Positions 17,734-61,260 of a stretch of DNA of 64,000 bases are shown one piece after another. A program made the position numbers and the translations under genes. A model generated the notes under the pieces. That model ran no database searches and was not told the DNA's origin. It was given only the letters and a program-made list of their open reading frames with translations. Origin of the DNA: Niabella ginsenosidivorans (GTDB lineage Bacteria > Bacteroidota > Bacteroidia > Chitinophagales > Chitinophagaceae); contig NZ_CP015772.1 in assembly GCF_001654455.1 (NCBI RefSeq), positions 496,001-560,000 on the forward strand, read 5' to 3'. Every line of letters begins with the position of its first letter. Position 1 is the first letter of the stretch.

Positions 17734-17862
17734 GGCTGTATCAAAAGTCGCTTTAACAACGGAATGTCGTTCTGAACTTGTTTCAGAATCTATTGATAAT
17801 CGTATGTGATTTTTAGATACCGGATCAAGTCCGGTATGACAATAATGACTTTGGATACAGCC
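17734..17862. repeat. MITE-like intergenic repeat, variant copy
   Basis: This 129-bp element is bounded by GGCTGTATCAAAAGTC and GACTTTGGATACAGCC, which are 15/16 inverted-repeat matches. It shares the core TGTCGTTCTGAACTTG with the copies at 112-239 and 31472-31597. The second internal hairpin differs (TACCGGATCAAGTCCGGTA). It lies 76 bp past the M1 peptidase stop. Confidence 0.75.
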
Positions 17863-25300: not shown

Positions 25301-25340
25301 TTTTTGCAAGTTTTTTTGTGATTTTGCATTTTTTTGCAGG
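25301..25340 (+). promoter_or_regulatory. 10-bp-phased TTTTGC repeats upstream of DeoR-like regulator 1
   Basis: TTTTTGCAAG, TTTTTTTGTG, ATTTTGCATT and TTTTTGCAGG follow each other at 10-bp steps, putting TGC on one helix face at 25305, 25325 and 25335, with TGT near 25317. The same phasing occurs upstream of regulator 2. The array lies ~60 bp before the start at 25398, as expected for an autoregulatory operator; phased T-tracts would also bend the DNA. The operator role is inference. Confidence 0.5.
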
Positions 25341-25397
25341 TTTATAACTTATCTTTAGTAAACGATTAACAGATTTATAAGTTTAAATTAACAATAC

Positions 25398-26147
25398 TTG
25401 TTAAAGAAGGAACGGCAGGCATATATTCTTCATCGTTTGAATCTTCACAACAAAGTTTTGAGCGCCAGTCTTTGTGAGGATATGAAGGTATCTGAAGATA
25501 CAGTGCGCAGAGATCTTCAGGAGCTTGCCGGCGCAGGAAAACTGATAAAAGTGCATGGTGGTGCCTTATCGCTTGCATTTAACGAAGTGCACTTTAATTC
25601 CCGTACTGTTTATTCGCAGGGGCAGAAAGCCATTATAGCAGAAAAAGCAATAGGTCTGATAAAAGAAAATATGTATGTACTGACCAGCGGCGGTACTACG
25701 ATCCTTGAAATGGCGCGGCATTTACCGCCCCAGCTCAGGGCTACTTTTATTACAGGTAGCATACCGGCATTAAACGCCTATATAGCGCATCCCAATATTA
25801 ATGTAATTGTTGTTGGAGACCGTGTCAACAAGGAATCGAAGATTACTGTAGGTGCCAGTGCTATTGAAAAAATAAAGGAAGTTAATGCCGACCTGTGCCT
25901 GCTGGGTACCAATGCTATTGATCTGCAAAGAGGAATAACAGACAGTGACTGGGAAGTAGTGGAACTGAAAAAAGCTATGATCGCAGCATCTGCCAAAACT
26001 GTCTGCCTGACCATTGCGGAAAAACTGAATTCTTTTGAGGCCTTGCAGGTATGCGAATTGAAACGGATTGACTATTTAATTACGGAATTAGATCCAACAG
26101 ATAAATTATTGCAACCCTATGTGAAGGCAGGGGTTGCGGTTTTATAA
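25398..26147 (+). CDS. DeoR/GlpR family transcriptional regulator 1
   Basis: This 249-aa regulator has an N-terminal winged helix (about 1-57, RQAYILHRLNLHNKV ... VSEDTVRRDLQELAGAGKL), with the usual DeoR recognition helix. The C-terminal sugar-phosphate sensor domain includes VLTSGGTTILEMARHL and GTNAIDLQRGITDSDWEVVELKK. It starts at a TTG codon at 25398, aligned with a GTG start in its close paralogue at 31933. A 134-bp gap separates it from the SusC gene at 26282. Control of that SusCD pair, probably as a repressor sensing a phosphorylated sugar, is inferred from position. Confidence 0.9.
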   Translation: MLKKERQAYILHRLNLHNKVLSASLCEDMKVSEDTVRRDLQELAGAGKLIKVHGGALSLAFNEVHFNSRTVYSQGQKAIIAEKAIGLIKENMYVLTSGGTTILEMARHLPPQLRATFITGSIPALNAYIAHPNINVIVVGDRVNKESKITVGASAIEKIKEVNADLCLLGTNAIDLQRGITDSDWEVVELKKAMIAASAKTVCLTIAEKLNSFEALQVCELKRIDYLITELDPTDKLLQPYVKAGVAVL

Positions 26148-26281
26148 TTATTTAAAAACAGGCATTTTAGGAAGGATCAGTATTTGAATGACCAGACTTC
26201 AACCTGCAGATGCAAGGCTGAGCCTACACAAACAGGTATAACGGCTATATAAATTTTTATAAAAAAACAAAAAGTAAAAGT

Positions 26282-29200
26282 ATGAGAAAATGGAAGCTTT
26301 TTAGTTTGATCATGTTGGCGATGCTTTACATGATTTCAAACAACCTGATGGCTCAAAGGGTTCCCATTAGCGGAACGGTACTTTCAGACGATGGTGCACC
26401 GCTGGAAGGAGTAACCGTTGCAGTAAGCGGAACAACCCGGGCAACTGTCACGGACAATAATGGCAAATTCACCATTAGTGCCAATGAAGGCACGTTACTG
26501 GAATTTAGCTATGTGGGTTATTTTACCCAAAAAGTAAAAGCCTCGGCCGGGATGGAGGTACACCTGTCAAAAGGAGAATCCGGCCAGCTAAGCGATGTAG
26601 TGGTTACGGCCATGGGTATTAAAAAAGAACGAAAAGCATTAGGCTATTCTGTTACTGAACTGGATGCACAGGAATTAATGAAAAATAAAAATACAAACGT
26701 CGTTAATTCTTTAGCAGGTAAAGTTCCGGGCGTAAACATTACGCAATTCAGTGGTTCAGCCGGTGCCGGCGCATCTATAACCATCCGTGGTGGTAATTCC
26801 ACATCAGAAGGCCGGCAAAATCAGCCGTTATTTGTTATTGATGGTATTATCTATGATAACTCCACAACGGTTACCGGTAATACAGGTACCGATGGTTTAT
26901 CGCGCAGTAACACAACCTATTCAAACCGTGTTATGGATATTAATCCTGAAGATATAGCAAGTCTTTCGGTATTGAAAGGAGCTGCGGCAGCGGCATTGTA
27001 CGGATCACGGGCAGCTGATGGTGTTGTAATCATTACCACAAAGAAAGGAGCAGAAGGCCGGGTAACGGTTAGTGTGAATAGCAAAATAAGCACTTCATGG
27101 GCCAATAAGCTGCCTCAGCCACAAACCGAATTTGGTAATGGCTCTTATGCCAGTAATGGTGTTTTTAGTGATGACAGCTATAACTCCTGGGGGATGAAAA
27201 TTCCGGCCGACAGCACGATATATGATAATATCGGTAATTTCTTTCAAAATGGCGTTGTATATGACAATAACGTAAACGTAGCAGGCGGCACCAAAAACGG
27301 CTCTTTTTATTTATCAGGATCTAATTATAATCAAACAGGTATCGTTCCCAATACAGGATATGATAAAACGACTTTCCGGTTTAACGGCGAACAAAAATAC
27401 GGACGTTTGACGTTGAATGCCAATGTTGCCTATTCTGTTGCTAATACTGACAGAACCTTGACTACTGCAGGATTATGGTCTGGCGGAGGATATAATGGGG
27501 TAGGGAGTATGCAGGCTTTATACGGCTGGCCCCAGACATTTGATATAACCAATTATATCAATCCCGACGGGACACAACATCGAATATTTGGCGGAACGCT
27601 TGCTTTAGAAAACGACAGAGACAACCCTTACTGGATCATTAATATGGATAAATTGACATCACAGACAAAACGCTTTACCGGAGGCATCAATGCCAATTAT
27701 AAGATTGCAGACTGGTGGGACTTTATTGCCCGTTTGGGTTACGATCAGTATGCAACGAATGATTATACGTATATTGCCCCCGGTTCGGCCGTTGCTCCTC
27801 TGTATCAAAACGGGCGTCTGAGCAAAGACCTGTTTGACTACACCTACATTACTACTACTGTAATGAGCAATTTCCATAAAACATTCGGCGGTTTTGATAC
27901 GCACCTGATGCTGGGAACCACTTCTGAAAGTACGGAATCGTCCAACCAGAATCATTGGGGATACGACTTTGTAACAGCAGGCACTATCAGCTTTAATAAT
28001 ATTGCCACGACCAATAAATTTTTTACGGATGTAACAACCAGGAAACGGTTGGTAGGTGCTTATGGAGAAATTGGCGTATCTTATAAAAGCATTGCATTTC
28101 TTACTGCAACAGGCCGTAATGACTGGTCATCTACATTACCTGTTGAGAACCGGTCTTATTTTTATCCTTCTCTTAGCGGCTCTTTTGTATTTACGGAATT
28201 GCTGCCCAAGAACAATGTTCTTTCCTTCGGAAAGGTCCGGGCAAGCTGGGCACAGGTAGGTAAAGATGCCAATGCCTATGCTACCAATACATATGTAAAT
28301 CCCCCTTATACCATTGGTTCTTTTATCGCAGTAGGAAATCAGTGGGCTGCCGGTAATCCTGTTTTGAAACCTGAAATTCAATCTTCCTGGGAAGTAGGGG
28401 GCGAGTTCCGGTTCCTGCAGGGTCGTATTGGGCTGGATTATACCTACTATCATAGTCAGACAGAGAATCAGATCGGGCAACCACGTTTAGCCCAATCCGG
28501 CGGATTTATTTTCAGTACTCTCAATTCGGGTTCTGTCATTAACAAGGGTATGGAAATAGCACTTACCGCCAAACCGATAGCCCAAGAAGACTTCGGATGG
28601 GAAACAGTGCTGAATTTTTCCTATAACAAAGGCCGGTTAGGTGCTTTCATCCCGGGCATTGCCTATTTTTATCCCACCGATGCCCAGTTCGGAACGGTGA
28701 AAGCAGCGTCTATTCCCAACGGAGGCTTTTTCCTGGGAATGACCGGTCAGCCTTACCTGCGTGAAGTCGATGCAGATGGGAAAGAAATTCCGAATGGGCG
28801 TTACCAGGTTGACCCTACGACCGGGTTGTATAAGCTGAACACTACTAATCCTGTTGTCGGCAACCGCGAGCCTGATTTCATCGGCGGTTTTAATAATACG
28901 TTTCGATACAAAAAGTTTATGCTGTCATTCCTTCTTGACATCCGTAAGGGAGGCGATGTGTATAATGGTACTGAGTATGCAATGGTCGCAAACGGGTTAA
29001 GTAAAAAAACGTTGCTGAACGACCGCCAGTCAGTAACTGTAAGCGGGGTTAACAGCGCTACCGGGGAAGATTTTACACAGACTTATGAAGCTGATAAGAC
29101 CTATACCATTGGCGGGAAAACCTATAATGGTAATTATATGATCCAGCAGTACTGGCAAAACTATGCGGCCAATTCTCTAAATTTTATTACTTCTGTAAAC

Positions 29201-29446
29201 TGGCTCAAGCTACGTTCCCTATCGTTAACATATGACTTTACCAGTATGCTGAAGAATAAAAAAGTGATTAAAAATCTCTCTGCAACAGCTGTAGGCACTA
29301 ATTTGTTCACATGGACCAACTACAAAGGAATGGATCCCGAGGTAAGCGCGGCCGGAGGAACGGGAGGATCTGGCTCTACAGGTATTGATTACCTGGGCGT
29401 ACCTGCAGTAGCCAGTTTCACATTCGGGGTAAATCTTACATTTTAA
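26282..29446 (+). CDS. SusC/RagA family TonB-dependent outer membrane receptor 1
   Basis: This 1054-aa receptor has a signal peptide (cleavage near LMA-QR, residue ~24), a CarboxypepD_reg-like domain (about 27-105, ISGTVLSDDGAPLEGVTVAV) and the SusC-type junction DVVVTAMGIKKERKALGY. The plug domain follows (LAGKVPGVNI, IRGGNS, PLFVIDGIIYD, VLKGAAAAALYGSRAADGVV), then a 22-strand barrel ending in FTFGVNLTF. It takes up a nutrient with the lipoprotein encoded 3 bp downstream. No glycoside hydrolase lies nearby, so the substrate cannot be guessed. Confidence 0.95.
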   Translation: MRKWKLFSLIMLAMLYMISNNLMAQRVPISGTVLSDDGAPLEGVTVAVSGTTRATVTDNNGKFTISANEGTLLEFSYVGYFTQKVKASAGMEVHLSKGESGQLSDVVVTAMGIKKERKALGYSVTELDAQELMKNKNTNVVNSLAGKVPGVNITQFSGSAGAGASITIRGGNSTSEGRQNQPLFVIDGIIYDNSTTVTGNTGTDGLSRSNTTYSNRVMDINPEDIASLSVLKGAAAAALYGSRAADGVVIITTKKGAEGRVTVSVNSKISTSWANKLPQPQTEFGNGSYASNGVFSDDSYNSWGMKIPADSTIYDNIGNFFQNGVVYDNNVNVAGGTKNGSFYLSGSNYNQTGIVPNTGYDKTTFRFNGEQKYGRLTLNANVAYSVANTDRTLTTAGLWSGGGYNGVGSMQALYGWPQTFDITNYINPDGTQHRIFGGTLALENDRDNPYWIINMDKLTSQTKRFTGGINANYKIADWWDFIARLGYDQYATNDYTYIAPGSAVAPLYQNGRLSKDLFDYTYITTTVMSNFHKTFGGFDTHLMLGTTSESTESSNQNHWGYDFVTAGTISFNNIATTNKFFTDVTTRKRLVGAYGEIGVSYKSIAFLTATGRNDWSSTLPVENRSYFYPSLSGSFVFTELLPKNNVLSFGKVRASWAQVGKDANAYATNTYVNPPYTIGSFIAVGNQWAAGNPVLKPEIQSSWEVGGEFRFLQGRIGLDYTYYHSQTENQIGQPRLAQSGGFIFSTLNSGSVINKGMEIALTAKPIAQEDFGWETVLNFSYNKGRLGAFIPGIAYFYPTDAQFGTVKAASIPNGGFFLGMTGQPYLREVDADGKEIPNGRYQVDPTTGLYKLNTTNPVVGNREPDFIGGFNNTFRYKKFMLSFLLDIRKGGDVYNGTEYAMVANGLSKKTLLNDRQSVTVSGVNSATGEDFTQTYEADKTYTIGGKTYNGNYMIQQYWQNYAANSLNFITSVNWLKLRSLSLTYDFTSMLKNKKVIKNLSATAVGTNLFTWTNYKGMDPEVSAAGGTGGSGSTGIDYLGVPAVASFTFGVNLTF

Positions 29447-29449
29447 GTA

Positions 29450-31459
29450 ATGAAAAAAAATAAACAGATGAAAAATTTAAATTATATTATACTCGGTTGT
29501 ATACTGTTATCAGGCCTGGCTTCCTGTAAAAAATGGCTGGATGTGAACACCGATCCGGATAACCCCAATAATCAAAGCGTATTGATTGAAAACCGGCTGC
29601 CCTGGATCGAACACTTTTACCAGTATTCATCAGGGGTTACCAATTTTCGCACGGCATGCCAGGCCGGGGTTTATTATAGCACTACTGCCGGTGCCAATAC
29701 GTTCAGCACAACATGGCAGTGCTCTAACGCTAATTCAACAACCCCCTATCAAACCTGGTTTGTAGCAGTGTCTTCGAATGTGGTTGACATGTATAATGCT
29801 GCGCAGAAAAAAGGAGCTTATCATTATATGGCAGTAGCTGATGTGTTTCATGCATTGGGCTTTATGGAAATGCTGGATCTATATGGCGAAATGCCCTACA
29901 CAGAGGCCGCAACAGGAAACCCAAGCCCTAAGCCTGATGACGGTAAAACCATTTTTAATGGTTGTATGGCAAAATTAAATGAAGCCATCAGCCTGTTCAG
30001 CAAAGCACAGGAAGCCGGAGCGCCTGCACTTTCTTCTGGCGATTTGTGGAATACAGCTGGCGATGTCAACAAATGGATAAAATTATGCTGGGGATTAAAA
30101 GCCCGTTATATGTTGAAGCTGTCAAAAAAAGCAGATTTATATAACCCGGACTCTATTCTTTACTGTTTATCCAAAGGACCGCAGTCTATTGCTGATAATA
30201 TAGTAGGACCCGGTCTAAACAACAGTACCGTAACCGACTATTTGATAGGCGACCCTGTTGTAACCAATGGTAACTTTGATTATGCGGCTTATGGCAGTGC
30301 CAACCGTATTTCTCAATTCTATTACAACCTGCTTACCAATATGCGCGGCGCCGGCGTTACGGACCCCCGCATGACTAAAATTGTACCTGCTGCCATGTCT
30401 AATATTAAATTAGATGGTAACGGCAAGGTAACTTCTTATACCTGGAAACGTTCTATAGGCGTTGATTCTTATGGTCCTGCAACCCGCTTACAGAAAGGAG
30501 GTCCTGTTTCTATTGCAACGGCGAGCTATGCCGCTGCAAATACAGATATAAAATATACGATTGCCGATGCAACAGATCGCTCTCATTTTATTGATACTAT
30601 AACTAAAGCAGGAAAAACCTTCACGGTTAACGGAAATGATGTAACGGTAACTTATCCGAAGGGGTCTTTATTTATAAACAGCTCCAATTACGTCTATGCC
30701 GGCGATACGGTTTATGTAAATATGCGCAGCAGTGCTATCGCAACATCGGGTATAGCCGCCCAGGGGGAAACGGATGTAAGCTGGTATCCTTCTGTTGATG
30801 CATTTAATGCCGGCGCTGTGGCTTCCACAGGCTCATTTCAGGTGCGCCCGGTTTCCGACCAGGAGATCCTGACCTATCATGAGATGTGCTTTATTAAAGC
30901 GGAAGTGTATAAGCGAAAAGGAGAGAACGGTAATGCTTTAACGGCATATAAGGAAGGCATTAAAGCGCACCTGGATATGATGCAGGCCAAGTTAAACCAG
31001 TGGAAGACGGAAGGGTATACGGCTACCAATCCGGATATGGCACCTATGGATGCTGCTGCTATCAATACTTATCTGGCGAGCCCTGCAGTTGCCCAGGGAT
31101 CAGTTACCATGCAGGACATTATGTTGCAAAAATTCATTGCCATGGGTTGCAGTATTGAGAACTGGAACGATATGCGCCGGTTTAACTTCAGCGCTGATAA
31201 TGGGGGTGATATTGGCGTTGTTTACCCCGGTTATCAGCGCGGTCCCTTATTTACTGGTCAGGCTCAGCTCACAGGTGCTTCTCCATCTGATGTCAGGTAT
31301 TGGATGCGCCGCTGGATGCTGCCACCAACTTATGAAATAAATTATAATTCAGTAAATACACTGGCTTTGAACCCCCATGCTGCTGATCCGAATATCTGGA
31401 GCATGCCTGTTTGGTGGGATTGCGCCACTGATGACGAGTATTACGGATATCTTAAGTAA
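29450..31459 (+). CDS. SusD/RagB-like nutrient-binding outer membrane lipoprotein 1 (long form)
   Basis: This 669-aa lipoprotein has a type II signal peptide with lipobox GLASC and KKWLDVNTDPDNPNN straight after, typical of the SusD-like nutrient-binding group. It starts 3 bp after the SusC stop, so the two are co-transcribed. A second ATG at 29468 is also possible. It is longer than usual (450-550): an extra, largely beta stretch of about 110 residues (around 310-430, with FTVNGNDVTVTYPKG) sits in the second half. The C-terminal WNDMRRFNFS and RYWMRRWMLPPTYEI are family landmarks. Confidence 0.9.
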   Translation: MKKNKQMKNLNYIILGCILLSGLASCKKWLDVNTDPDNPNNQSVLIENRLPWIEHFYQYSSGVTNFRTACQAGVYYSTTAGANTFSTTWQCSNANSTTPYQTWFVAVSSNVVDMYNAAQKKGAYHYMAVADVFHALGFMEMLDLYGEMPYTEAATGNPSPKPDDGKTIFNGCMAKLNEAISLFSKAQEAGAPALSSGDLWNTAGDVNKWIKLCWGLKARYMLKLSKKADLYNPDSILYCLSKGPQSIADNIVGPGLNNSTVTDYLIGDPVVTNGNFDYAAYGSANRISQFYYNLLTNMRGAGVTDPRMTKIVPAAMSNIKLDGNGKVTSYTWKRSIGVDSYGPATRLQKGGPVSIATASYAAANTDIKYTIADATDRSHFIDTITKAGKTFTVNGNDVTVTYPKGSLFINSSNYVYAGDTVYVNMRSSAIATSGIAAQGETDVSWYPSVDAFNAGAVASTGSFQVRPVSDQEILTYHEMCFIKAEVYKRKGENGNALTAYKEGIKAHLDMMQAKLNQWKTEGYTATNPDMAPMDAAAINTYLASPAVAQGSVTMQDIMLQKFIAMGCSIENWNDMRRFNFSADNGGDIGVVYPGYQRGPLFTGQAQLTGASPSDVRYWMRRWMLPPTYEINYNSVNTLALNPHAADPNIWSMPVWWDCATDDEYYGYLK

Positions 31460-31471
31460 TGAATAGTTGGA

Positions 31472-31597
31472 GGCTGACCAAAAAGTCTGTTTATAACAGA
31501 TTGTCGTTCTGAACTTGTTTCAGAATCTATTTACAATCAGATGCCATTTTAGATGCTGAAATAAATTCAGCATGACAAAGGGACTTTTTGGTCAGCC
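31472..31597. repeat. MITE-like intergenic repeat, best copy (perfect 16-bp TIR)
   Basis: This 126-bp element is bounded by perfect 16-bp inverted repeats GGCTGACCAAAAAGTC and GACTTTTTGGTCAGCC. Inside are two imperfect hairpins, TTCTGAACTTGTTTCAGAA and TGCTGAAATAAATTCAGCA. It aligns with the reverse complement of 112-239. It starts 13 bp after the SusD 1 stop, so it may also end that transcript. Confidence 0.85.
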
Positions 31598-31850
31598 CCA
31601 GGTAAATAGTTTTAATTTTTATCCGCAAAACAGCGGAATAAAGCCGTCTCAAAGTAATGGGGACAGCTTTTTGATCTAAGGGTAGGGTAAACTTTTATAA
31701 CAAGGGCTCATTGATTGGTTGCCAAAATTTATCTTGGACGATCTTCTCCGGGAGGCCAGTTGCTGTATATGCTGCCGGATGAATATTTCTCTTATGCATT
31801 AAACCTGTAAAAAGTCGCATTAAAACGCAAATTTTGATTTTAAAGTTATC

Positions 31851-31880
31851 CACATTTGCAATTTTTTGCGGCAAATTGCG
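31851..31880 (+). promoter_or_regulatory. 10-bp-phased TGC repeats upstream of DeoR-like regulator 2
   Basis: CACATTTGCA, ATTTTTTGCG and GCAAATTGCG place TGC at 31857, 31867 and 31877, exactly 10 bp apart, about 55 bp before the GTG start of regulator 2. The layout matches the array upstream of regulator 1. An operator shared by the two paralogues is inferred. Confidence 0.5.
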
Positions 31881-31932
31881 GTATTGTTAAAATATTTAAC
31901 GTATCTTCAATAGTACATTTAAACCAATTGCT

Positions 31933-32682
31933 GTGTTAAAGAAAGAGCGACAGGCATATATTTTACACAGGCTTGATATACATAATAAAGTAGTCAATAC
32001 AAAACTCTGTGAAGATATTGGTGTGTCTGAAGATACCATACGCAGGGATTTGGAGGAACTTGACCGGGCTGGTAAACTGATCAAGGTGCATGGTGGAGCT
32101 TTATCTAACTCGTTTAATCATATTCACTTTGATACGGTTCCTGTTTATTCGCTGCAGCAAAAAGAAAAGATTGCCGAAAAAGCGATCCGTTTGATTAAAG
32201 ATAATATGTATGTGCTGACCAGCGGGGGAACTACCATCCTTGAAATGGCCAAACGTTTGCCCCATCAGTTAAAAGCCACCTTTATTACAGGAAGTATTCC
32301 GGTTTTAAATGCATACATACAGCACCCGAACCTCAATGTAATTGTAGTAGGAGACCGGGTAAATAAAAATGCAAAAATAACAGTAGGCGCCAGCGCTATT
32401 GCGAAGATCAGGGAGGTAAATGCGGATTTGTGCATATTGGGCACCAATGCGATCGACCTGCGGCGCGGGATAACCGATAACGACTGGGAAGTGGTAGAAT
32501 TGAAGAGAGCCATGATAGAGGCATCCACCAAAACTGTTTGCCTTACCATTGCAGAAAAACTGAACTCTTTTGAGGCCTTACAGGTGTGCGAATTGAAACG
32601 GATCGACTATTTAATTACGGAATTAAGTCCGGACGATAAATTATTGCAACCCTATGTTAAAGCAGGGGTGACTGTTTTATAA
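31933..32682 (+). CDS. DeoR/GlpR family transcriptional regulator 2 (paralogue)
   Basis: This 249-aa regulator is the same length as regulator 1 and roughly 80% identical by eye, most strongly in the last 90 residues (KTVCLTIAEKLNSFEALQV is unchanged). The winged helix (VSEDTIRRDLEELDRAGKL) and sensor domain (LTSGGTTILEMAKRL) are intact. It uses a GTG start at 31933. Only 20 bp separate it from the SusC gene, so it is probably in one operon with SusC/SusD 2. Its recognition helix is almost the same as that of regulator 1, so cross-regulation is likely (inference). Confidence 0.9.
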   Translation: MLKKERQAYILHRLDIHNKVVNTKLCEDIGVSEDTIRRDLEELDRAGKLIKVHGGALSNSFNHIHFDTVPVYSLQQKEKIAEKAIRLIKDNMYVLTSGGTTILEMAKRLPHQLKATFITGSIPVLNAYIQHPNLNVIVVGDRVNKNAKITVGASAIAKIREVNADLCILGTNAIDLRRGITDNDWEVVELKRAMIEASTKTVCLTIAEKLNSFEALQVCELKRIDYLITELSPDDKLLQPYVKAGVTVL

Positions 32683-32702
32683 GAATTTTAACCAATAAAA
32701 TC

Positions 32703-35700
32703 ATGAGAAAATCAATCATTTTTTCTGTACTCTTTTTGGTATTGTCGGGTATGGCAACAACAAGGCTATGGGCCCAGGACAAAACGATTACAGGAACCGT
32801 TTTTACGACAGCCAATACACCAATTGAAGGAGTAACAGTGCTGGTAAAGGAGAATGCTACAGCCACTACCACTGACGAAAATGGTAAGTATTTTATTAAG
32901 GCTGCACCTGGCCAAACGCTGGAGTTTAGTTCAGTTAGCTACAAGACAAAAAATATCGCCGTTACTGATATGGATACAGTAAACGTTATTCTGGAAGCGC
33001 TGGCGAATTCAATGGACGAAGTAGTCATTGTTGGATATGGAACACAGAAGAAAAGCGACCTGACAAATGCTATTGCTACTGTAGATGTTCAAAAGACATT
33101 CGGAAGCCGTCCGTTGGCAGATCCGATAAGAGCATTGCAAGGTACGGTTCCGGGACTGAACATTAATTATGCCAATGGCGGTTTAACCACCAGTCCAACC
33201 ATTAACATCAGAGGTTTGGGATCCGTGAATGGATCCAATAAGCCGCTAATACTTGTGGATAATATTGAAACTCCTGACCTGAGCATTATAAATCCTTACG
33301 ATATAGAAAGTATTTCTGTATTAAAAGACGCTACTTCGGCATCCATATACGGAGCGCGCGCAGCATTTGGCGTTGTTTTGATCAAGTTAAAACAGGGACG
33401 TCGTAATATAGCGCCTCTTGTCAGTTATAATGGAAACTATTCATGGGCTAAAGCGCAGGGAATGCCTGAATTTGCTGACCCGGTAAAGGAATTAGATGGA
33501 ATTATTCTGGGCTCAAAAAGAGCGGGGACAACCTCTCCTGAACTTTTTGGAATGCAACTGGATCAACTACGCGATGGGATTGCAAATTGGCAAAAGAATT
33601 ATGCGGCTACCAACACAGGCCTGGAAATGAAAAAGGGCGAAGACTTTGATATTATTAATGGTCAACCTTATTTTTATAAAGTCTGGGATGTAGATAAGAT
33701 TATGTTTCGATCAATGCCTCAGACTAACCAGGCGTTGAGTATAATGGGTGGGTCTGACAGGGTAACCTACTATCTTTCGGGCGCTTATAACTATCAGGGA
33801 GGAATGCTGAAAGTAAACCCGGATGCTATTAAAAAATACAATATTACCGGCGGGGTAAATGTTGATGTTACCAAATGGTGGACTGTCGGCCTGAAAATGT
33901 TGTACAGGAATTTTGAGTATACTTATCCGTATCAATATCAGGATTATTTTTATTATATGTGGCGCTGGGGAGCTTACTGGCCTTATGGAACCTATCAGGG
34001 GATCTATTTCCGGAATATACCCGGTTTGATGTCAAATGCGCAGGATGCCTATACAAAAGACAATTATAGCAGGGTTGATTTAAGTACCTCTTTAAAAATA
34101 GTAAAAGGACTGACACTGGATTTGAATTACACTATTGGTAAAGACAACGTATTAAATCATGAAGTGGGAGGCCCTGTGATGTTATGGAACTTCTGGAGTG
34201 CCAATGCGCCGCTGCAGGATGTAACTTCCGCCTCTCAAAATGTTGTTAGCTATTCGCAATACCGGTATGGGCAGAATACCTTTAATGCTTATCTGACTTA
34301 TGAAAAAAGGTGGCAAAAGCATCATTTTAAGGGAATGGCCGGTATTAACTCTGAGAGTTATGAAAATCTGGGTTTTACAGCATCACGTCGCAATTTACTT
34401 GATCCGACGAAAGGGGAACTTCCGTTAGCCACAGGTGATCAGTTTGCTACCGGAAGTCATGGTAACCGGGCATATGCCGGTTATTTTAGTCGTTTGAATT
34501 ATGACTATGAAGGTAAATATCTTTTCGAGGTAATGGGACGGTATGACGGATCTTCATCCTTTCCAATAAATGACCGGTGGGCGTTTTTCTCAGGTGCTTC
34601 TGCAGGTTGGGCACTGGGGAAGGAACAGTTTATGGATTTTGCAAAACCGGTTTTAAACGACTGGAAAATTCGGGCCTCTTTAGGAAGCATCGGCAACCAG
34701 GATGTGGGCGGTCAATATTTTATTCCACAAATGTACGCCAGTCAAATCAGCTGGATGTATAACGGAAACTATGTACAGGGCGTAACACCGCCACTTTCGG
34801 TACCCAGTTCATTAACCTGGGAGAAAATTCAAACCCTGGATGTTGGTACTGATATGAGTTTCCTGAAAGATGATAAATTAACATTAACCTTCGATTGGTT
34901 TCAGAGAACCAACGATAACATGATAACATCTGTTACGCTGCCCAATACATATGGTACTTCTGCTGCTTTAAACCCAAGGAGAAATGACGGGTCCATGCGT
35001 ACCCGTGGTTATGAAATAACCATTAATGGTAATTTCCCTGTTGGCAAGGATTTTACAATTTATTCCACGGTAGGATTTGCTGATCAAAAGGCCATAATTA
35101 CTAAATGGTATAATCCATCGCAGTTAATTGGTAATTATTATTCGGGTGCCACCTTAGGTGATATCTGGGGATTTGTAACCGACCGCTATTTTACAAATGC
35201 GGATTTTACAGAAGATGCAAATGGCAAGCTGGTTTACGCAAACGGCATTCCTTCCCAAGCTGCATTAATAGGTGGATCAAGCAATTTCGTATTCGGCCCA
35301 GGTGATATTAAATATAAAGACCTGAACGGTGATGGTAAAATCGATGGGGGTAATGCTTCTGCCTCAGATCATGGGGACCTGAAGGTGATCGGTAATACGC
35401 AACCCCGTTATAGTTTTACTTTAAGACTTGGAGCGGTATATAAAAATTTTGATATCGATTTGTTTGCTCAGGGGGTTGGTAAAAGAAATCTCTGGGGTGC
35501 CGGAAATGTGGTCATCCCTTTATATCAGGGTGCTGATATTTTATATGCAAATCAAATTGACTACTGGACTCCCGATAATCCTAATGCCCGTTTCCCGAAT
35601 CCATATGTTGGAAATGGCGGCGGCGGAACAATTGCAGGGTTAGGCGCCGGCGTGAACAACTTTTATCCACAGACCAAATATCTTTTAAATCTGGCCTATG

Positions 35701-35933
35701 CAAGGTTAAAAAATCTAACAGTTGGATACACGCTTCCAAATAGTTTTCTGGGAAGATATCATATTCAAAAGTGTAGAGTTTATTTTAGCGGAGAGAATCT
35801 GTTTACTATCAAAGACAAATACCTGCCAATTGATCCGGAAGCTTTCGATGCCAGTTCTACCGGAGGCTTTACAGGCAGGACCTGGCCTATATCCCGGGTA
35901 TTTTCGGTGGGTTTACAAATCAATTTCCAATAA
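32703..35933 (+). CDS. SusC/RagA family TonB-dependent outer membrane receptor 2
   Basis: This 1076-aa receptor has a signal peptide (cleavage near LWA-QD), a CarboxypepD_reg-like domain (about 28-105), the SusC signature DEVVIVGYGTQKKSDLTNAI and a plug with LQGTVPGLNI, IRGLGSVNGSNKPLILVDNIE and VLKDATSASIYGARAAFGVVLI. The C-terminal barrel ends VFSVGLQINFQ. It differs clearly from SusC 1, belonging to the GYGTQKK subgroup rather than the TAMGIKKE one, so the two SusCD pairs are not a tandem duplication. The SusD gene follows after 15 bp. Confidence 0.95.
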   Translation: MRKSIIFSVLFLVLSGMATTRLWAQDKTITGTVFTTANTPIEGVTVLVKENATATTTDENGKYFIKAAPGQTLEFSSVSYKTKNIAVTDMDTVNVILEALANSMDEVVIVGYGTQKKSDLTNAIATVDVQKTFGSRPLADPIRALQGTVPGLNINYANGGLTTSPTINIRGLGSVNGSNKPLILVDNIETPDLSIINPYDIESISVLKDATSASIYGARAAFGVVLIKLKQGRRNIAPLVSYNGNYSWAKAQGMPEFADPVKELDGIILGSKRAGTTSPELFGMQLDQLRDGIANWQKNYAATNTGLEMKKGEDFDIINGQPYFYKVWDVDKIMFRSMPQTNQALSIMGGSDRVTYYLSGAYNYQGGMLKVNPDAIKKYNITGGVNVDVTKWWTVGLKMLYRNFEYTYPYQYQDYFYYMWRWGAYWPYGTYQGIYFRNIPGLMSNAQDAYTKDNYSRVDLSTSLKIVKGLTLDLNYTIGKDNVLNHEVGGPVMLWNFWSANAPLQDVTSASQNVVSYSQYRYGQNTFNAYLTYEKRWQKHHFKGMAGINSESYENLGFTASRRNLLDPTKGELPLATGDQFATGSHGNRAYAGYFSRLNYDYEGKYLFEVMGRYDGSSSFPINDRWAFFSGASAGWALGKEQFMDFAKPVLNDWKIRASLGSIGNQDVGGQYFIPQMYASQISWMYNGNYVQGVTPPLSVPSSLTWEKIQTLDVGTDMSFLKDDKLTLTFDWFQRTNDNMITSVTLPNTYGTSAALNPRRNDGSMRTRGYEITINGNFPVGKDFTIYSTVGFADQKAIITKWYNPSQLIGNYYSGATLGDIWGFVTDRYFTNADFTEDANGKLVYANGIPSQAALIGGSSNFVFGPGDIKYKDLNGDGKIDGGNASASDHGDLKVIGNTQPRYSFTLRLGAVYKNFDIDLFAQGVGKRNLWGAGNVVIPLYQGADILYANQIDYWTPDNPNARFPNPYVGNGGGGTIAGLGAGVNNFYPQTKYLLNLAYARLKNLTVGYTLPNSFLGRYHIQKCRVYFSGENLFTIKDKYLPIDPEAFDASSTGGFTGRTWPISRVFSVGLQINFQ

Positions 35934-35948
35934 TAAAACTTTCAAAAA

Positions 35949-37634
35949 ATGAAATACATATATAAATTCTACTTTATTTTGAGCGCTTTTATTGTTCTAT
36001 CCGGTTGTAAAAAGTTTGTTGACAAAAAGCCTTTGGATAGTTTCAGCGATACTGATTTCTGGACCAGCGAAAATGCGCTTAGAACCTATAACTGGGAGTT
36101 TTACAATTTGTTTATAGGCTACGGTACTGGCGCATCAGGTGATTTTTACTTTTCTGATTTTAGTGATGACCAGGATGGTTCTGCGCTAAGAAACTTTGTT
36201 GCAAACGCTCCTGCCACGAATAGCTCATGGACCTTTTACTGGGTACGTAAGGCAAATATTATGCTTGAAAGAATTGACCAGGTACCAATTGACGATGCGG
36301 CAAAAAACCATTGGAAAGGAGTTGCCAGGTTTTTTAGGGCTATGACGTATTTTAATTTAGTTAAAACATTTGGTGACGTACCCTTTATTAATAAATCCCT
36401 GGATCTCCCGGATACTACTTTGATTTATAAACCGCGTGATCCCAGAGCGCTGGTAATGGATAGTGTACTTGCCGACCTGAATTATGCAGTGGCAAATCTG
36501 AGGGATGCCGACCTTTCTAACACAGTAAATAAAAATATCGCACGGGCATTTTTGTCTCGTGTCGCTTTATTTGAAGGTACCTACCGGAAGTATCATACAG
36601 AATTAAACCTTCCCAACGCTGCAACCTATCTTAAAGCTGCAAAAGATGCTGCTAATGAATTGATGACTGCAGGATATTCTCTTAATGCTGATTATCAAAC
36701 CACTTACAATTCCCTGGACCTTAGCACAAACAAACAGGTAATTATGTTCAAACAATATGCACCGGGTTTTTTAACGCATTCGGTTATTGGCTATACAAAC
36801 AGTTCCACAACTATGAGCGGCTTAACAAAGAATGCTGTGGAAAGCTATCTTGCTAGTGATGGTCTGCCTATTTCGCTTTCACCTCTTTATAAGGGGGATT
36901 CTTCTATTACAACGTTGCGACAAAACCGGGATAAGCGGCTGCTTGAAACGATTGATACGGTTCTTATGTATCAGGGACATCTGTGGAACGGCTTTAGCTC
37001 AAGTACTGGTTACCGGCCGGCCAAGTTTTTACAACCTTTGGATCCGAATCAGCTGGCTCCTTATAATTCAACGGATGCGCCGTTGTTTGGCTTACCAGAG
37101 GTGCTTTTAAATTATGCCGAAGCCTGTGTGGAACTGGACCAGATGGGCGAATATTCGATGACACAAGGAGACCTGGACCGTTCTGTAAATCTTTTAAGAG
37201 CGAGAGCCGGAGTAGCACCATTACAACTTTCAGGAAAACAAGGTACAGCTGTTAACGGAGTCGCATTTGTTGATCCTAAAATGGATAAGGCAGATGATGC
37301 TAAGGCTGGGTCAGGAAACGAAATGACATCATTAAAATGGGAGATCAGAAGAGAGCGCAGGACGGAATTAATGATGGACGGATTCCGATATGATGATTTG
37401 ATGCGATGGAAGAAAGGATGGTATTTGGATAATTCAAAAAATCCCGATATTTTTCTGGGGGCTAAAGTTCCTGCGAATGATAAAATTAACCGGTCACCGG
37501 ATGGTTATTTAATGGTATATGCTGCCAGTGCAACCAGAGCGTTTACAGATCCGAAAAATTATTTGTCGGCGGTGCCGACGGGTCAGATAGCCTTATATGC
37601 CAACGGGAATTTATCTCAGAATCCGGGTTGGTGA
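35949..37634 (+). CDS. RagB/SusD family outer membrane lipoprotein 2
   Basis: This 561-aa lipoprotein has a type II signal peptide with lipobox VLSGC (Cys20) and KKFVDKKPLDSFSDTDFWTSE, a classical RagB/SusD start. The TPR-like N-terminal region includes ARFFRAMTYFNLVKTFGDVPF and the C-terminal domain the diagnostic LKWEIRRERRTELMMDGFRYDDLMRWKKG. Length is normal. It caps the SusC 2 receptor on the cell surface. The operon end is at the hairpin 37870-37901; a group II intron fragment lies between stop and hairpin. Confidence 0.94.
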   Translation: MKYIYKFYFILSAFIVLSGCKKFVDKKPLDSFSDTDFWTSENALRTYNWEFYNLFIGYGTGASGDFYFSDFSDDQDGSALRNFVANAPATNSSWTFYWVRKANIMLERIDQVPIDDAAKNHWKGVARFFRAMTYFNLVKTFGDVPFINKSLDLPDTTLIYKPRDPRALVMDSVLADLNYAVANLRDADLSNTVNKNIARAFLSRVALFEGTYRKYHTELNLPNAATYLKAAKDAANELMTAGYSLNADYQTTYNSLDLSTNKQVIMFKQYAPGFLTHSVIGYTNSSTTMSGLTKNAVESYLASDGLPISLSPLYKGDSSITTLRQNRDKRLLETIDTVLMYQGHLWNGFSSSTGYRPAKFLQPLDPNQLAPYNSTDAPLFGLPEVLLNYAEACVELDQMGEYSMTQGDLDRSVNLLRARAGVAPLQLSGKQGTAVNGVAFVDPKMDKADDAKAGSGNEMTSLKWEIRRERRTELMMDGFRYDDLMRWKKGWYLDNSKNPDIFLGAKVPANDKINRSPDGYLMVYAASATRAFTDPKNYLSAVPTGQIALYANGNLSQNPGW

Positions 37635-37639
37635 GTAAT

Positions 37640-37844
37640 GAGAATGGAGCGAAGGAGATGTATTATCTGTCCTATTCAATTGGCGGGAAACTACGGAAAC
37701 GCAGGAGGTATCAAAGAGGTTAGGCAAAACACGAAGAGACAATGTTAGTCTCAAGTGCATTAGATAATAAGAGCCGTATGATGCGAGAGTATCACGTACG
37801 GATCTATGAGGGGATTGGGGTGAAATTCCCCAGGTCTACTCTAC
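37640..37844 (+). mobile_element. Group II intron 3' fragment (domains V and VI), no ORF
   Basis: At 37771-37805 the RNA folds as a domain V: GAGCCGTATG, a GAGA tetraloop closed by ATGC/GTAT, a CA-type bulge, then GTACGGATC. The catalytic AGC triad is at positions 2-4; one lower-stem pair is mismatched. Domain VI follows (about 37808-37840, GGGG...CCCC arm), and the end CTCTAC at 37839-37844 fits an intron 3' terminus. The ~130 bp upstream contain further structured sequence (GGGAAACTACGG) probably from the same intron, but the 5' end and the reverse transcriptase are missing. The left boundary is uncertain. Confidence 0.8.
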
Positions 37845-58478: not shown

Positions 58479-59771
58479 ATGATGTACAGTAGAATCAGTC
58501 AATTTGTGCTCCATTTTTGGACCGGGATCATCAATATGGGTATAGAGCCGGAACTGCCGTTAATTGAATGCAGGCGTGTCCGGTTATTAAATGTGCTGGT
58601 ATTCATTGCAATTCCCCCGGTAATGATCTATCCCTTTATAAATTGGATGCAGGGACGCTATTTCCTTGTGGGCTTGAATATCGTAAACCTCGCGTCGTTG
58701 CTGCTGGTATTGCTGCTTCATAAAAAGCGTAAATATATGGCTGCCCGGTATACCCGCATTGGCTGCAGTATTTTTGTTTATACGGTTTCGGGACTTTGTT
58801 TTCATACAGGTGCTGAGTATTTTTTGCTGAATACGCTGATCCTTACAATAATTGTATTTGATAATAAATGGGTTATAGCAGGCATCAGCTTGCTGATCAT
58901 TACTGCGGCGGCATTGGCCCTTACGCACCCGGTGCCAATGTACCCGATAGGGCCGGTGCGTGCCGGTAGAATAGGGAGCAATATTGTTTTATCTTTACTT
59001 TTTACAGTATTAGCGCTGTATTTTTTTAAAAGCATTCAGCAGGATTATCAGCAGGAAATTGAAAAACAAAAGCAGGCTTTATTCCTGATGAATCAGGATA
59101 AGGAGAAGTTGTTTTCCATTATTGCGCATGATATCCGTAGTCCTTTAGCCAGTCTGGAGGCATTGATGTCTCAGTTCCAGGATGGATTCTTAAGCGGCCC
59201 AGAACTGAACGAAGCCTCTGTAGTGATCCGGAACCGGGTGTCGGGTCTGAACAGGACCATGGATAATCTGCTTCGCTGGAGCATGTTAGGAATGCGTGGA
59301 ATAAAGACGCATGCACAGCATTTTCTTATTTTGCCTGTTCTGGAAGAAGTCATCCAGCTCTTTAATACGGTGGCAGGGCAGAAGCATATACAAATGGAGC
59401 TGCAGGTGCCTGACGAATTAGCGGTTTATGCCGATCAGGATCAGGTTGCGGTTATCCTGCGTAACCTGGTAAGTAATGCATTGAAATTCAGTTATGAGGG
59501 AGGAAATATTGTTATTACGGCAGCTCAAAAAGATGATCAGGTGCTGCTCCGGATCGCGGACCGGGGAATGGGTATGGATGAGCAGCGGACCAGTGCATTA
59601 TTTGCAGGATTGCAGCAACCCGGTTATGGAACTTACGGAGAACGGGGAACGGGCCTGGGCTTATTGTTATGCAAAGAATTTGCATTGCTGAATAAGGGTA
59701 CTATTGAGGCAGAGAGCCGGGAGGGCAGGGGAACGGTCTTTACCCTGACCTTACAAAAAGGGGATTATTAA
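58479..59771 (+). CDS. Six-helix membrane sensor histidine kinase A
   Basis: This 430-aa kinase has about six membrane helices (about 38-190) with no known sensor domain. A short coiled linker (QQDYQQEIEKQKQALFLMNQD) leads to the HisKA dimerisation helix with phospho-His217 in FSIIAHDIRSPL. The HATPase shows LRNLVSNALKFSYEGG (N box), DRGMGMDE (G1) and GERGTGLGLLLCKEF (G2). No receiver and no regulator are encoded nearby. It is a close paralogue of the kinase at 59932, with shared words in sensor and kinase parts (MNQDKEKLFS and RGTGLGLLLCKEFA), so a tandem duplication is likely. Confidence 0.93.
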   Translation: MMYSRISQFVLHFWTGIINMGIEPELPLIECRRVRLLNVLVFIAIPPVMIYPFINWMQGRYFLVGLNIVNLASLLLVLLLHKKRKYMAARYTRIGCSIFVYTVSGLCFHTGAEYFLLNTLILTIIVFDNKWVIAGISLLIITAAALALTHPVPMYPIGPVRAGRIGSNIVLSLLFTVLALYFFKSIQQDYQQEIEKQKQALFLMNQDKEKLFSIIAHDIRSPLASLEALMSQFQDGFLSGPELNEASVVIRNRVSGLNRTMDNLLRWSMLGMRGIKTHAQHFLILPVLEEVIQLFNTVAGQKHIQMELQVPDELAVYADQDQVAVILRNLVSNALKFSYEGGNIVITAAQKDDQVLLRIADRGMGMDEQRTSALFAGLQQPGYGTYGERGTGLGLLLCKEFALLNKGTIEAESREGRGTVFTLTLQKGDY

Positions 59772-59931
59772 AATCAGAGTGCCAATAAACAAACGATTAA
59801 ATGAAGTAAGGATTTATACAGAAAGCTTTAAATACAAGGTGCTCTTAATAAAATAGGCGCTTTTGAATAAGTAGCAGCAGCTAATGTACAGCCTCATTTT
59901 ACTATTCATCTAAAAATTGCCTGAACAAAGA

Positions 59932-61260
59932 ATGATTAAAAAGGTATTTAAAACGGTTATTGCGTATCTGGAGAGAAAGGCGTCTATAGGAACCTACCCG
60001 GGCATGCCCTACCTGGAAGAGCGGCGTACGAGGCTGCTGAATTTGATTGCGCTGCCCTGTGTTCCGCTGATGTTTTTTTTCTGTATCGTAAATTTAGTGC
60101 AGGGCCGTTATATATTGTCAGCAATAAATATGGCCAATACGCTTTCATCAATATTTGTGCTCGTACTGCATTATCACAAACGGTATTATTTTGCACGGTT
60201 ATTCCTTTTGGGATTTAATCTTGTCTTTTTTACCATTGCCGGACTGTATTTTCACAACGGGTCCGAGTATTTTTTGCTGAGCATCCTGCTTGTTACCATG
60301 CTGGTTTATGACGAGGGATGGCTGGAAATTATACTTTGCATACTGGTGGTACTGGCTATTATGCTGGTGATCTTTTTTCCGCAACCTTCTGTTCTGGGGG
60401 CGCCCGTTTCCAGGGGCCGGGTATTTGCAAATATTTTAAGTGTAACCGTCTTTATTGTATTCATTATCCTGTTCTTTAAACGTATACAATACGGGTATCA
60501 AAGCCAGGTTGAACACCAGCGGCAGGCGCTGCAGGCTATGAATCAGGATAAGGAAAAATTGTTTTCCATAGTAGCGCATGATATCCGCAGCCCGCTGATC
60601 ACCTTACAATCATTGCTTGATCAGTTTCAGGAAGGAGTGCTCAGTGCAGATGAACTGCTGGCTGCATCCGGTTTATTAAGAGAGCGGGTTGCAGGCTTAA
60701 ATGGCACATTGGATAATTTATTGCGCTGGAGTACACTGGGTATGCAGGGCCTGCATACCCAGCCTCGTAATTTTTATTTATTGCCCATCCTCACAGAGGC
60801 GATTCAGTTTTTTGACCTGCTTATAGCGCAAAAGAACATACAGATACATACCCGGGTGCCTGATACGGCAGTGCTGTATGCAGACCGGGACCAGGTATCG
60901 GTTATTCTCCGCAACCTCATCAGCAATGCCGTGAAATTCAGTTTTGAAGGAGGAACGATCACTGTTGGGATGGAAGAGCACAATGGTATGATTGTGCTTT
61001 CAGTGGCAGATCAGGGAGCAGGAATGGATGAACAACGGCTCAGCACATTATTCCTGAACCGTCAGCAACCGGAGTTCGGTACCGCAGGAGAACGGGGAAC
61101 GGGCCTCGGGCTATTGTTGTGTAAAGAATTTGCGCAATTAAATAACGGCGATATCCGGGTAAAAAGCCTCCCGGGAAAAGGTACCGTATTCAGCATTAGC
61201 CTGCAAAAAGGAACACTGCCTGCTTCTGCAAACAAAGCCCTGACGTTGACAACTGAATAG
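59932..61260 (+). CDS. Six-helix membrane sensor histidine kinase B (paralogue)
   Basis: This 442-aa kinase, read from the ATG at 59932, has the same plan as kinase A: six helices (to ~185), the linker YGYQSQVEHQRQALQAMNQDKEKL, phospho-His216 in FSIVAHDIRSPL, N box LRNLISNAVKFSFEGG, DQGAGMDEQRLS and RGTGLGLLLCKEFAQLNNGD. A TTG 15 bp further upstream is an alternative start. A shared motif FHNGSEYFLL / FHTGAEYFLL in the membrane part marks the common sensor. A 160-bp gap separates the two genes. Cognate regulator unknown. Confidence 0.92.
   Translation: MIKKVFKTVIAYLERKASIGTYPGMPYLEERRTRLLNLIALPCVPLMFFFCIVNLVQGRYILSAINMANTLSSIFVLVLHYHKRYYFARLFLLGFNLVFFTIAGLYFHNGSEYFLLSILLVTMLVYDEGWLEIILCILVVLAIMLVIFFPQPSVLGAPVSRGRVFANILSVTVFIVFIILFFKRIQYGYQSQVEHQRQALQAMNQDKEKLFSIVAHDIRSPLITLQSLLDQFQEGVLSADELLAASGLLRERVAGLNGTLDNLLRWSTLGMQGLHTQPRNFYLLPILTEAIQFFDLLIAQKNIQIHTRVPDTAVLYADRDQVSVILRNLISNAVKFSFEGGTITVGMEEHNGMIVLSVADQGAGMDEQRLSTLFLNRQQPEFGTAGERGTGLGLLLCKEFAQLNNGDIRVKSLPGKGTVFSISLQKGTLPASANKALTLTTE

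What the first reader, a model, noticed from the sequence alone, without database searches (positions are those of the whole stretch)
25301..37634. Paralogous DeoR-like regulators each upstream of an unrelated SusC/SusD pair
The two regulators have equal length and about 80% identity by eye, but the SusCD pairs behind them belong to different subgroups. So the regulator, not the transporter, was duplicated or shared. SusCD loci are more often controlled by ECF sigma/anti-sigma pairs, hybrid kinases or AraC types than by DeoR/GlpR regulators. No carbohydrate-active enzyme is present, so the nutrient is open.
Basis: partly seen in the sequence, partly recalled or inferred. Interest (0 to 1): 0.6.

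Follow-up and report, generated by a model that had tools for sequence, protein, structure and literature searches.

The report
Fixed regulator, interchangeable nutrient-uptake gene pairs
In this bacterium (Niabella) and much of its family, one kind of sugar-type gene switch sits right in front of outer-membrane uptake genes; the switch and its likely DNA landing site stay put while the uptake genes behind it differ from species to species, a control arrangement for these transporters that I did not find described.

Summary
R1 (25398-26147) and R2 (31933-32682) are 249-aa DeoR-family regulators, 81% identical, each directly upstream of a SusC/SusD pair. The SusCs are 29% identical and the SusDs belong to different Pfam families. 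The window is from Niabella (Chitinophagaceae).

The arrangement is not a local oddity. Of 103 family homologues at least 50% identical to R1, 88 sit directly before a same-strand SusC. The regulator stays fixed while the SusC changes: at the R1 slot, regulators 98% identical precede SusCs only 38% identical. Nine SusC groups need 40 changes on the regulator tree.

A 10-bp-period TGC direct repeat lies over the likely promoter of 75 of 102 regulators (shuffled mean 5.8). In this genome the only copies found at promoters are those of R1 and R2. R1 and R2 show signs of gene conversion.

Best model (inferred): R1 and R2 are autoregulating repressors sharing one operator, switching on R-susC-susD operons when they bind a sugar phosphate. 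The promoter-operator-regulator unit is a slot behind which SusCD cassettes are exchanged or lost. Ligand and cargo are unproven; C1 resembles the peptide-containing BT2263-64 complex. New variant of a known kind.

The parts
25324..25339 (+). predicted R operator, TTGCATTTTTTTGCAG (10-bp direct repeat TGC-N7-TGC), 74 bp before R1
25350..25357 (+). putative Bacteroidota -7 box TATCTTTA of the R1 operon, about 25 nt after the first TGC
   Evidence: sequence; spacing peak at +24/25 for TAnnTTT in 30 family sites
25398..26147 (+). R1, DeoR-family regulator (HTH_DeoR + DeoRC)
26282..29446 (+). C1, SusC/RagA TonB-dependent transporter, closest solved relative BT_2264
29450..31459 (+). D1, SusD-like_2 lipoprotein
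31465..31605 (.). dispersed palindromic (MITE/REP-like) repeat with 40 scored matches in the genome, between D1 and R2
31856..31881 (+). predicted R operator, three TTGC units at 10-bp period, 77 bp before R2
31902..31909 (+). putative -7 box TATCTTCA of the R2 operon
   Evidence: sequence, by analogy
31933..32682 (+). R2, DeoR-family regulator, paralogue of R1; CDS bases 597-693 look gene-converted with R1
32703..35933 (+). C2, SusC/RagA transporter
35949..37634 (+). D2, SusD_RagB lipoprotein
37769..37844 (+). remnant of a group II intron (domain V/VI) just behind the second cassette; not part of the regulatory unit but marks its edge
   Evidence: Rfam RF00029, 56.4 bits; single copy

Best explanation
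R1 and R2 are paralogous DeoR-type repressors, each the first gene of an R-susC-susD operon. Without ligand they bind a 10-bp-spaced TGC direct repeat that overlaps the promoter of their own operon, and a phosphorylated sugar bound in the DeoRC domain releases them. The regulator, its operator and its promoter form a fixed unit in Chitinophagaceae. Different SusCD cassettes are placed behind it, exchanged, or lost from tandem arrays, and come under its control by position. Because R1 and R2 share one operator and exchange sequence by gene conversion, the two operons here probably respond to the same or a similar signal and bring in two different substrates that occur together. Shown: anatomy, family-wide linkage, operator-like motif, SusCD turnover, conversion signal. 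Inferred: binding, repression, phosphosugar ligand, co-regulation.
For: Linkage: 88 of 103 homologues at least 50% identical are followed directly by a same-strand SusC, median gap about 49 bp. Operator: TGC-N7-TGC in 75/102 leaders, shuffled mean 5.8, maximum 14; only 7% of 832 other gene leaders, and spacing 7 stands out among 0-21 with an echo at 17; 14/14 and 45/48 for homologues at least 75% and 60-75% identical. Of 16 matches to a strict form in seven genomes, six lie 61-77 bp ahead of a regulator start (G000 twice, G001, G004, G009 and none elsewhere at such a promoter position apart from one intergenic site with no gene called after it, L263) (five regulator sites listed as L265, L268, L269, L273, L277). 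DeoR-family RhaR sites are two direct repeats with 10-11 bp periodicity (PMC3870299). Turnover: G005 and G006 R1 98% identical but SusC 38%; the window's C2/D2 type sits behind R1 in G005 and G010; 40 SusC-group changes on the regulator tree, minimum 8, shuffled mean 52. Operator belongs to the regulator: three C1/D1 copies without a regulator in front (G007, G013, G020) lack the motif. Conversion: window CDS bases 597-693, permutation p 0.002; G007 pair 97-100% over the first 675 bp then 56%.
Against: No binding, expression or ligand data. Only 16 of 40 more distant homologues (50-60%) keep the motif, so operators differ or drift there. The window conversion signal is one of eight pairs tested (about 0.016 after correction). 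Differential loss from an ancestral SusCD array explains part of the turnover. An activating role of R cannot be excluded. The AlphaFold model was too poor (pLDDT 61) to inspect a ligand pocket.
Confidence: 0.72

Rival explanations
1. R1 and R2 have diverged: each keeps the shared operator type but senses a different metabolite, so the two operons are separate single-nutrient uptake systems with no common regulon.
For: 81% identity leaves room for different ligands; R1 and R2 are separate orthologous clades; SusCDs differ in family and probable cargo.
Against: Same recognition-helix core (SEDT-V/I-RRDL) and the same operator; sequence exchange between the paralogues here and a near-identical pair in G007; the SusCD behind the same regulator changes, so a cargo-specific ligand is not needed.
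Confidence: 0.3
2. The differing SusCDs come only from loss out of an ancestral multi-SusCD array behind one regulator; there is no exchange or insertion.
For: Arrays exist: G015 R1-g1-C1D1-third pair, G008 R1-g1-C1D1.
Against: Order of types differs between species (in G009 another type precedes C1/D1); the C2/D2 type is behind R1 in G005/G010 but behind R2 here; the groups recur across many genera with 40 changes; C1/D1 also occurs away from any R.
Confidence: 0.25
3. The cassette turnover is driven by phages or other agents that use SusCD as receptors, and the regulator is only a convenient expression site.
For: In Bacteroides, SusC/SusD outer-membrane clusters vary by DNA inversion (PMC4747536).
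Against: No invertible repeats around the promoters; no phage data.
Confidence: 0.12

Closest known systems
DeoR-family sugar regulators such as AgaR, SrlR, GlpR and RhaR
   Same: Same domains over full length; tandem direct-repeat operator with 10-11 bp period as for DeoR-type RhaR (PMC3870299); first gene of a local operon with the predicted operator at its own promoter.
   Different: All NCBIfam equivalog models score far below cut-off (best 155 against 300). Target genes are outer-membrane SusCD, with no kinase, isomerase or aldolase in the operon.
Bacteroidota polysaccharide utilization loci (SusCD with HTCS, SusR or ECF sigma control)
   Same: SusC/SusD pair next to a dedicated regulator.
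   Different: Cytoplasmic DeoR instead of the sensor types listed in PMC3878776; no carbohydrate-active enzyme in the window cluster.
BT2263-BT2264 SusCD of B. thetaiotaomicron (PDB 5fq6)
   Same: Closest solved relative of C1 by far (E 2.7e-109); described as a peptide complex (PMC7782687).
   Different: I did not check its regulator; cargo of C1/D1 is untested.
SusC/SusD shufflon-type DNA inversions in Bacteroides fragilis (Tsr0667)
   Same: Variation of which SusCD is expressed (PMC4747536).
   Different: No inverted repeats suited to promoter inversion here; the variation is between species, behind a conserved regulator gene.

Membership tests
DeoR/GlpR family regulator | HTH_DeoR plus DeoRC domain | tested here: met
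   PF08220 and PF00455 above gathering scores in both
DeoR/GlpR family regulator | tandem direct-repeat operator at own promoter (by sequence only) | tested here: met
   TGC-N7-TGC in 75/102 leaders, shuffled mean 5.8; periodicity matches DeoR-type RhaR; binding itself untested
DeoR/GlpR family regulator | release by a phosphorylated sugar | not testable with these tools
   DeoRC domain and SGGTT motif kept; no ligand assay
SusC/SusD transporter pair | SusC with plug domain and family signature, followed by a SusD lipoprotein | tested here: met
   TIGR04056/TIGR04057 and SusD Pfam families
Polysaccharide utilization locus | carbohydrate-active enzyme in the locus | tested here: not met
   none in 25.3-37.6 kb; GHL10 and GH9 only in relatives
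Phase-variable SusCD shufflon | inverted repeats flanking promoter or genes | tested here: not met
   only the 21-nt terminal repeats of the dispersed element and two weak distant pairs
known DeoR equivalogs (AgaR, GlpR, SrlR, UlaR and others) | score above the curated model cut-off | tested here: not met
   best 155 bits against 300 required; RhaR had no model among the hits and was not compared directly

The most novel reading that the evidence does not exclude
A family-wide regulatory slot: a promoter-operator-DeoR unit kept in place across Chitinophagaceae, behind which unrelated SusCD transporters, including a peptide-type one, are swapped like cartridges, so that the signal sensed is set by the slot and not by the cargo. 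Tandem copies of the slot are kept alike by gene conversion.
Probability: 0.4. Interest if true: 0.7.

Novelty: new variant of a known kind. Interest (0 to 1): 0.55.

Why it matters
SusCD transporters decide what Bacteroidota can take up, and each is generally thought to be tied to a cargo-specific sensor. Here one regulator lineage with a predictable operator stands before at least seven SusC groups across one family. That predicts the control of about ninety loci, gives an entry to uptake systems of environmental Bacteroidota that carry no carbohydrate enzymes, and makes it testable whether signal and cargo can be uncoupled.

Tried and rejected
Invertible promoter or shufflon: no suitable inverted repeats. 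Wider regulon: two genome pattern scans found no other clear promoter sites in this genome. Fast SusC divergence as the cause of dissimilarity: rejected, because within-type SusCs diverge about as slowly as the regulators (C1 89% with R1 86-87% in G008). Solved-structure match for R1: none at E 0.01. AlphaFold of R1: pLDDT 61, so no fold search was run. Literature: no paper combining DeoR with SusC/SusD and Chitinophaga, or with Niabella; the library lacks most subscription journals. Two Pfam calls failed on wrong coordinates and were repeated with corrected input. One region request was too long and was repeated in pieces.

Full report
What is there. The window comes from a genome whose nearest named relatives are Niabella (Chitinophagaceae). 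R1 (25398-26147) and R2 (31933-32682) are DeoR-family regulators of 249 aa with 81% identity; DNA identity is 75%, with 84, 90 and 51% at the three codon positions. Each is followed on the same strand by a SusC/SusD pair, with gaps of about 135 and 20 bp. C1 and C2 are both SusC/RagA but 29% identical; D1 is SusD-like_2 and D2 is SusD_RagB.

It is a family-wide arrangement. Homologues of R1 occur in all 16 congeners searched and in 80 of 147 sampled family members at E <= 1e-60; in a sample of 295 genomes of the class, 11 matched at that level, eight of them outside the family and only at 41-51% identity. In fetched loci, 88 of 103 homologues at least 50% identical have a same-strand SusC as the next gene (15/15 at 75% or more, 42/48 at 60-75%, 31/40 at 50-60%). 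In the window's subclade the R1 slot has the same thiolase beside it and, in most species, the same ABC transporter beyond it, so it is one fixed place in the chromosome.

The transporter behind it changes. At that one slot, eight species carry SusCs of four groups; G005 and G006 have R1 98% identical and SusC 38%, while G006 and G015 have R1 93% and SusC 91%. The window's C2/D2 type, behind R2 here, sits behind R1 in G005 and G010 (D2 68% identical). R2 in four other species precedes another SusCD followed by two more genes, identified in G011 as DUF4623 and GHL10 proteins; a DUF4623 query found nothing in this genome, although an empty answer there is weak evidence. Across 84 regulator-SusC pairs, nine SusC groups need 40 changes on the regulator tree (minimum 8; shuffled mean 52.4, none of 200 as low), so association is partly inherited but turns over quickly. 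Some loci hold arrays of several SusCD pairs (G015, G008, G009), so both loss from arrays and exchange must be considered.

A shared operator. Regulator leaders hold TGC-N7-TGC, a direct repeat with 10-bp period, roughly TTTTTGCGGTTTTTTGCRGGAAA, mostly 47-74 bp before the start and often 25 nt ahead of a TAnnTTT box. It is in 75 of 102 leaders; shuffles that keep dinucleotides give 5.8 on average and 14 at most; 7% of 832 other leaders have it. Spacing 7 stands at 0.74; spacing 17, the two-period echo, at 0.46; 18 and 19 are slightly raised; the rest stay near background. In this genome TTTGCNNNTTTTTGC occurs nine times (twice for the reversed control) and TTGCRNNTTTNTGCRG three times; the sites at promoters are those of R1 and R2, the others I examined lie in or against other genes. 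The 10-11 bp direct-repeat form is what was reported for DeoR-type RhaR regulators (PMC3870299). Three C1/D1 copies without a regulator in front do not have the motif, so the site goes with the regulator and not with the transporter.

Exchange between the paralogues. R1 and R2 form two clades of orthologues in the window's subclade (supports 80/83 and 87/75, moderate). In the wider quick tree R2 of the window moves into the R1 side, which partial gene conversion would produce. In this genome CDS bases 597-693 are unusually alike (permutation p 0.002; third positions 0.74 in the tail against 0.44 in the body, not seen in three congeners). In G007 the two regulators are 97-100% identical over 675 bp and then 56%, in front of different SusCs. 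In another genus (G455) three tandem regulators that cluster together precede three different SusC groups.

How it most likely works. From general knowledge of DeoR proteins, R represses its own operon by covering the promoter and is released by a sugar phosphate. The SusCD behind it is controlled by position. As R1 and R2 share an operator and exchange sequence, the two operons probably form one small regulon that opens two different uptake doors at once. The cargo is open: C1 is closest to BT_2264, whose complex is described with peptide, while relatives carry GHL10, or GH9 plus a ROK kinase and an MFS transporter, near the same regulators, and the more distant third homologue of this genome (49%) sits by a ROK kinase, SIS protein, MFS transporter and a GH9-deacetylase protein, which points weakly to amino-sugar glycans.

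What is known. A comparative regulon study of B. thetaiotaomicron lists HTCS, SusR, ECF sigma factors and LacI, GntR, AraC, ROK, NrtR and Crp families and does not mention DeoR (PMC3878776). My searches for DeoR with SusC/SusD or Niabella found no description of this arrangement; the library is incomplete. I rate it a new variant of a known kind: known regulator family, known transporter family, an undescribed and evolutionarily mobile pairing of the two.

Noticed in passing
window 37769-37844: Remnant of a group II intron (domain V/VI, RF00029 56 bits) directly behind D2, single copy in the genome; it may mark a past insertion or recombination at the cassette's edge.
   Followed up: partly
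window 31465-31605, also about 111-237 and 17743-17852: Dispersed palindromic element with 40 scored matches in the genome (MITE/REP-like, 21-nt terminal inverted repeats); one copy separates D1 from R2.
   Followed up: partly
L084 (G000:C1:4791000-4810999): A third DeoR homologue (49% identical to R1) beside a ROK kinase, MFS transporter, SIS-domain protein and a GH9 plus polysaccharide-deacetylase protein; the TGC repeat was not found in its leader.
   Followed up: partly
L053:6182-9126, L064:11584-14583: DUF4623 protein followed by a GHL10 hydrolase, a recurrent pair behind one SusCD type in Niabella; function of DUF4623 unknown.
   Followed up: no
L188 (G455:C1:171000-190000): Three tandem regulator copies in one genome of another genus, each in front of a different SusC group.
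   Followed up: partly
window 58479-59771 and 59917-61260: Two adjacent histidine kinases, perhaps a tandem duplication.
   Followed up: no
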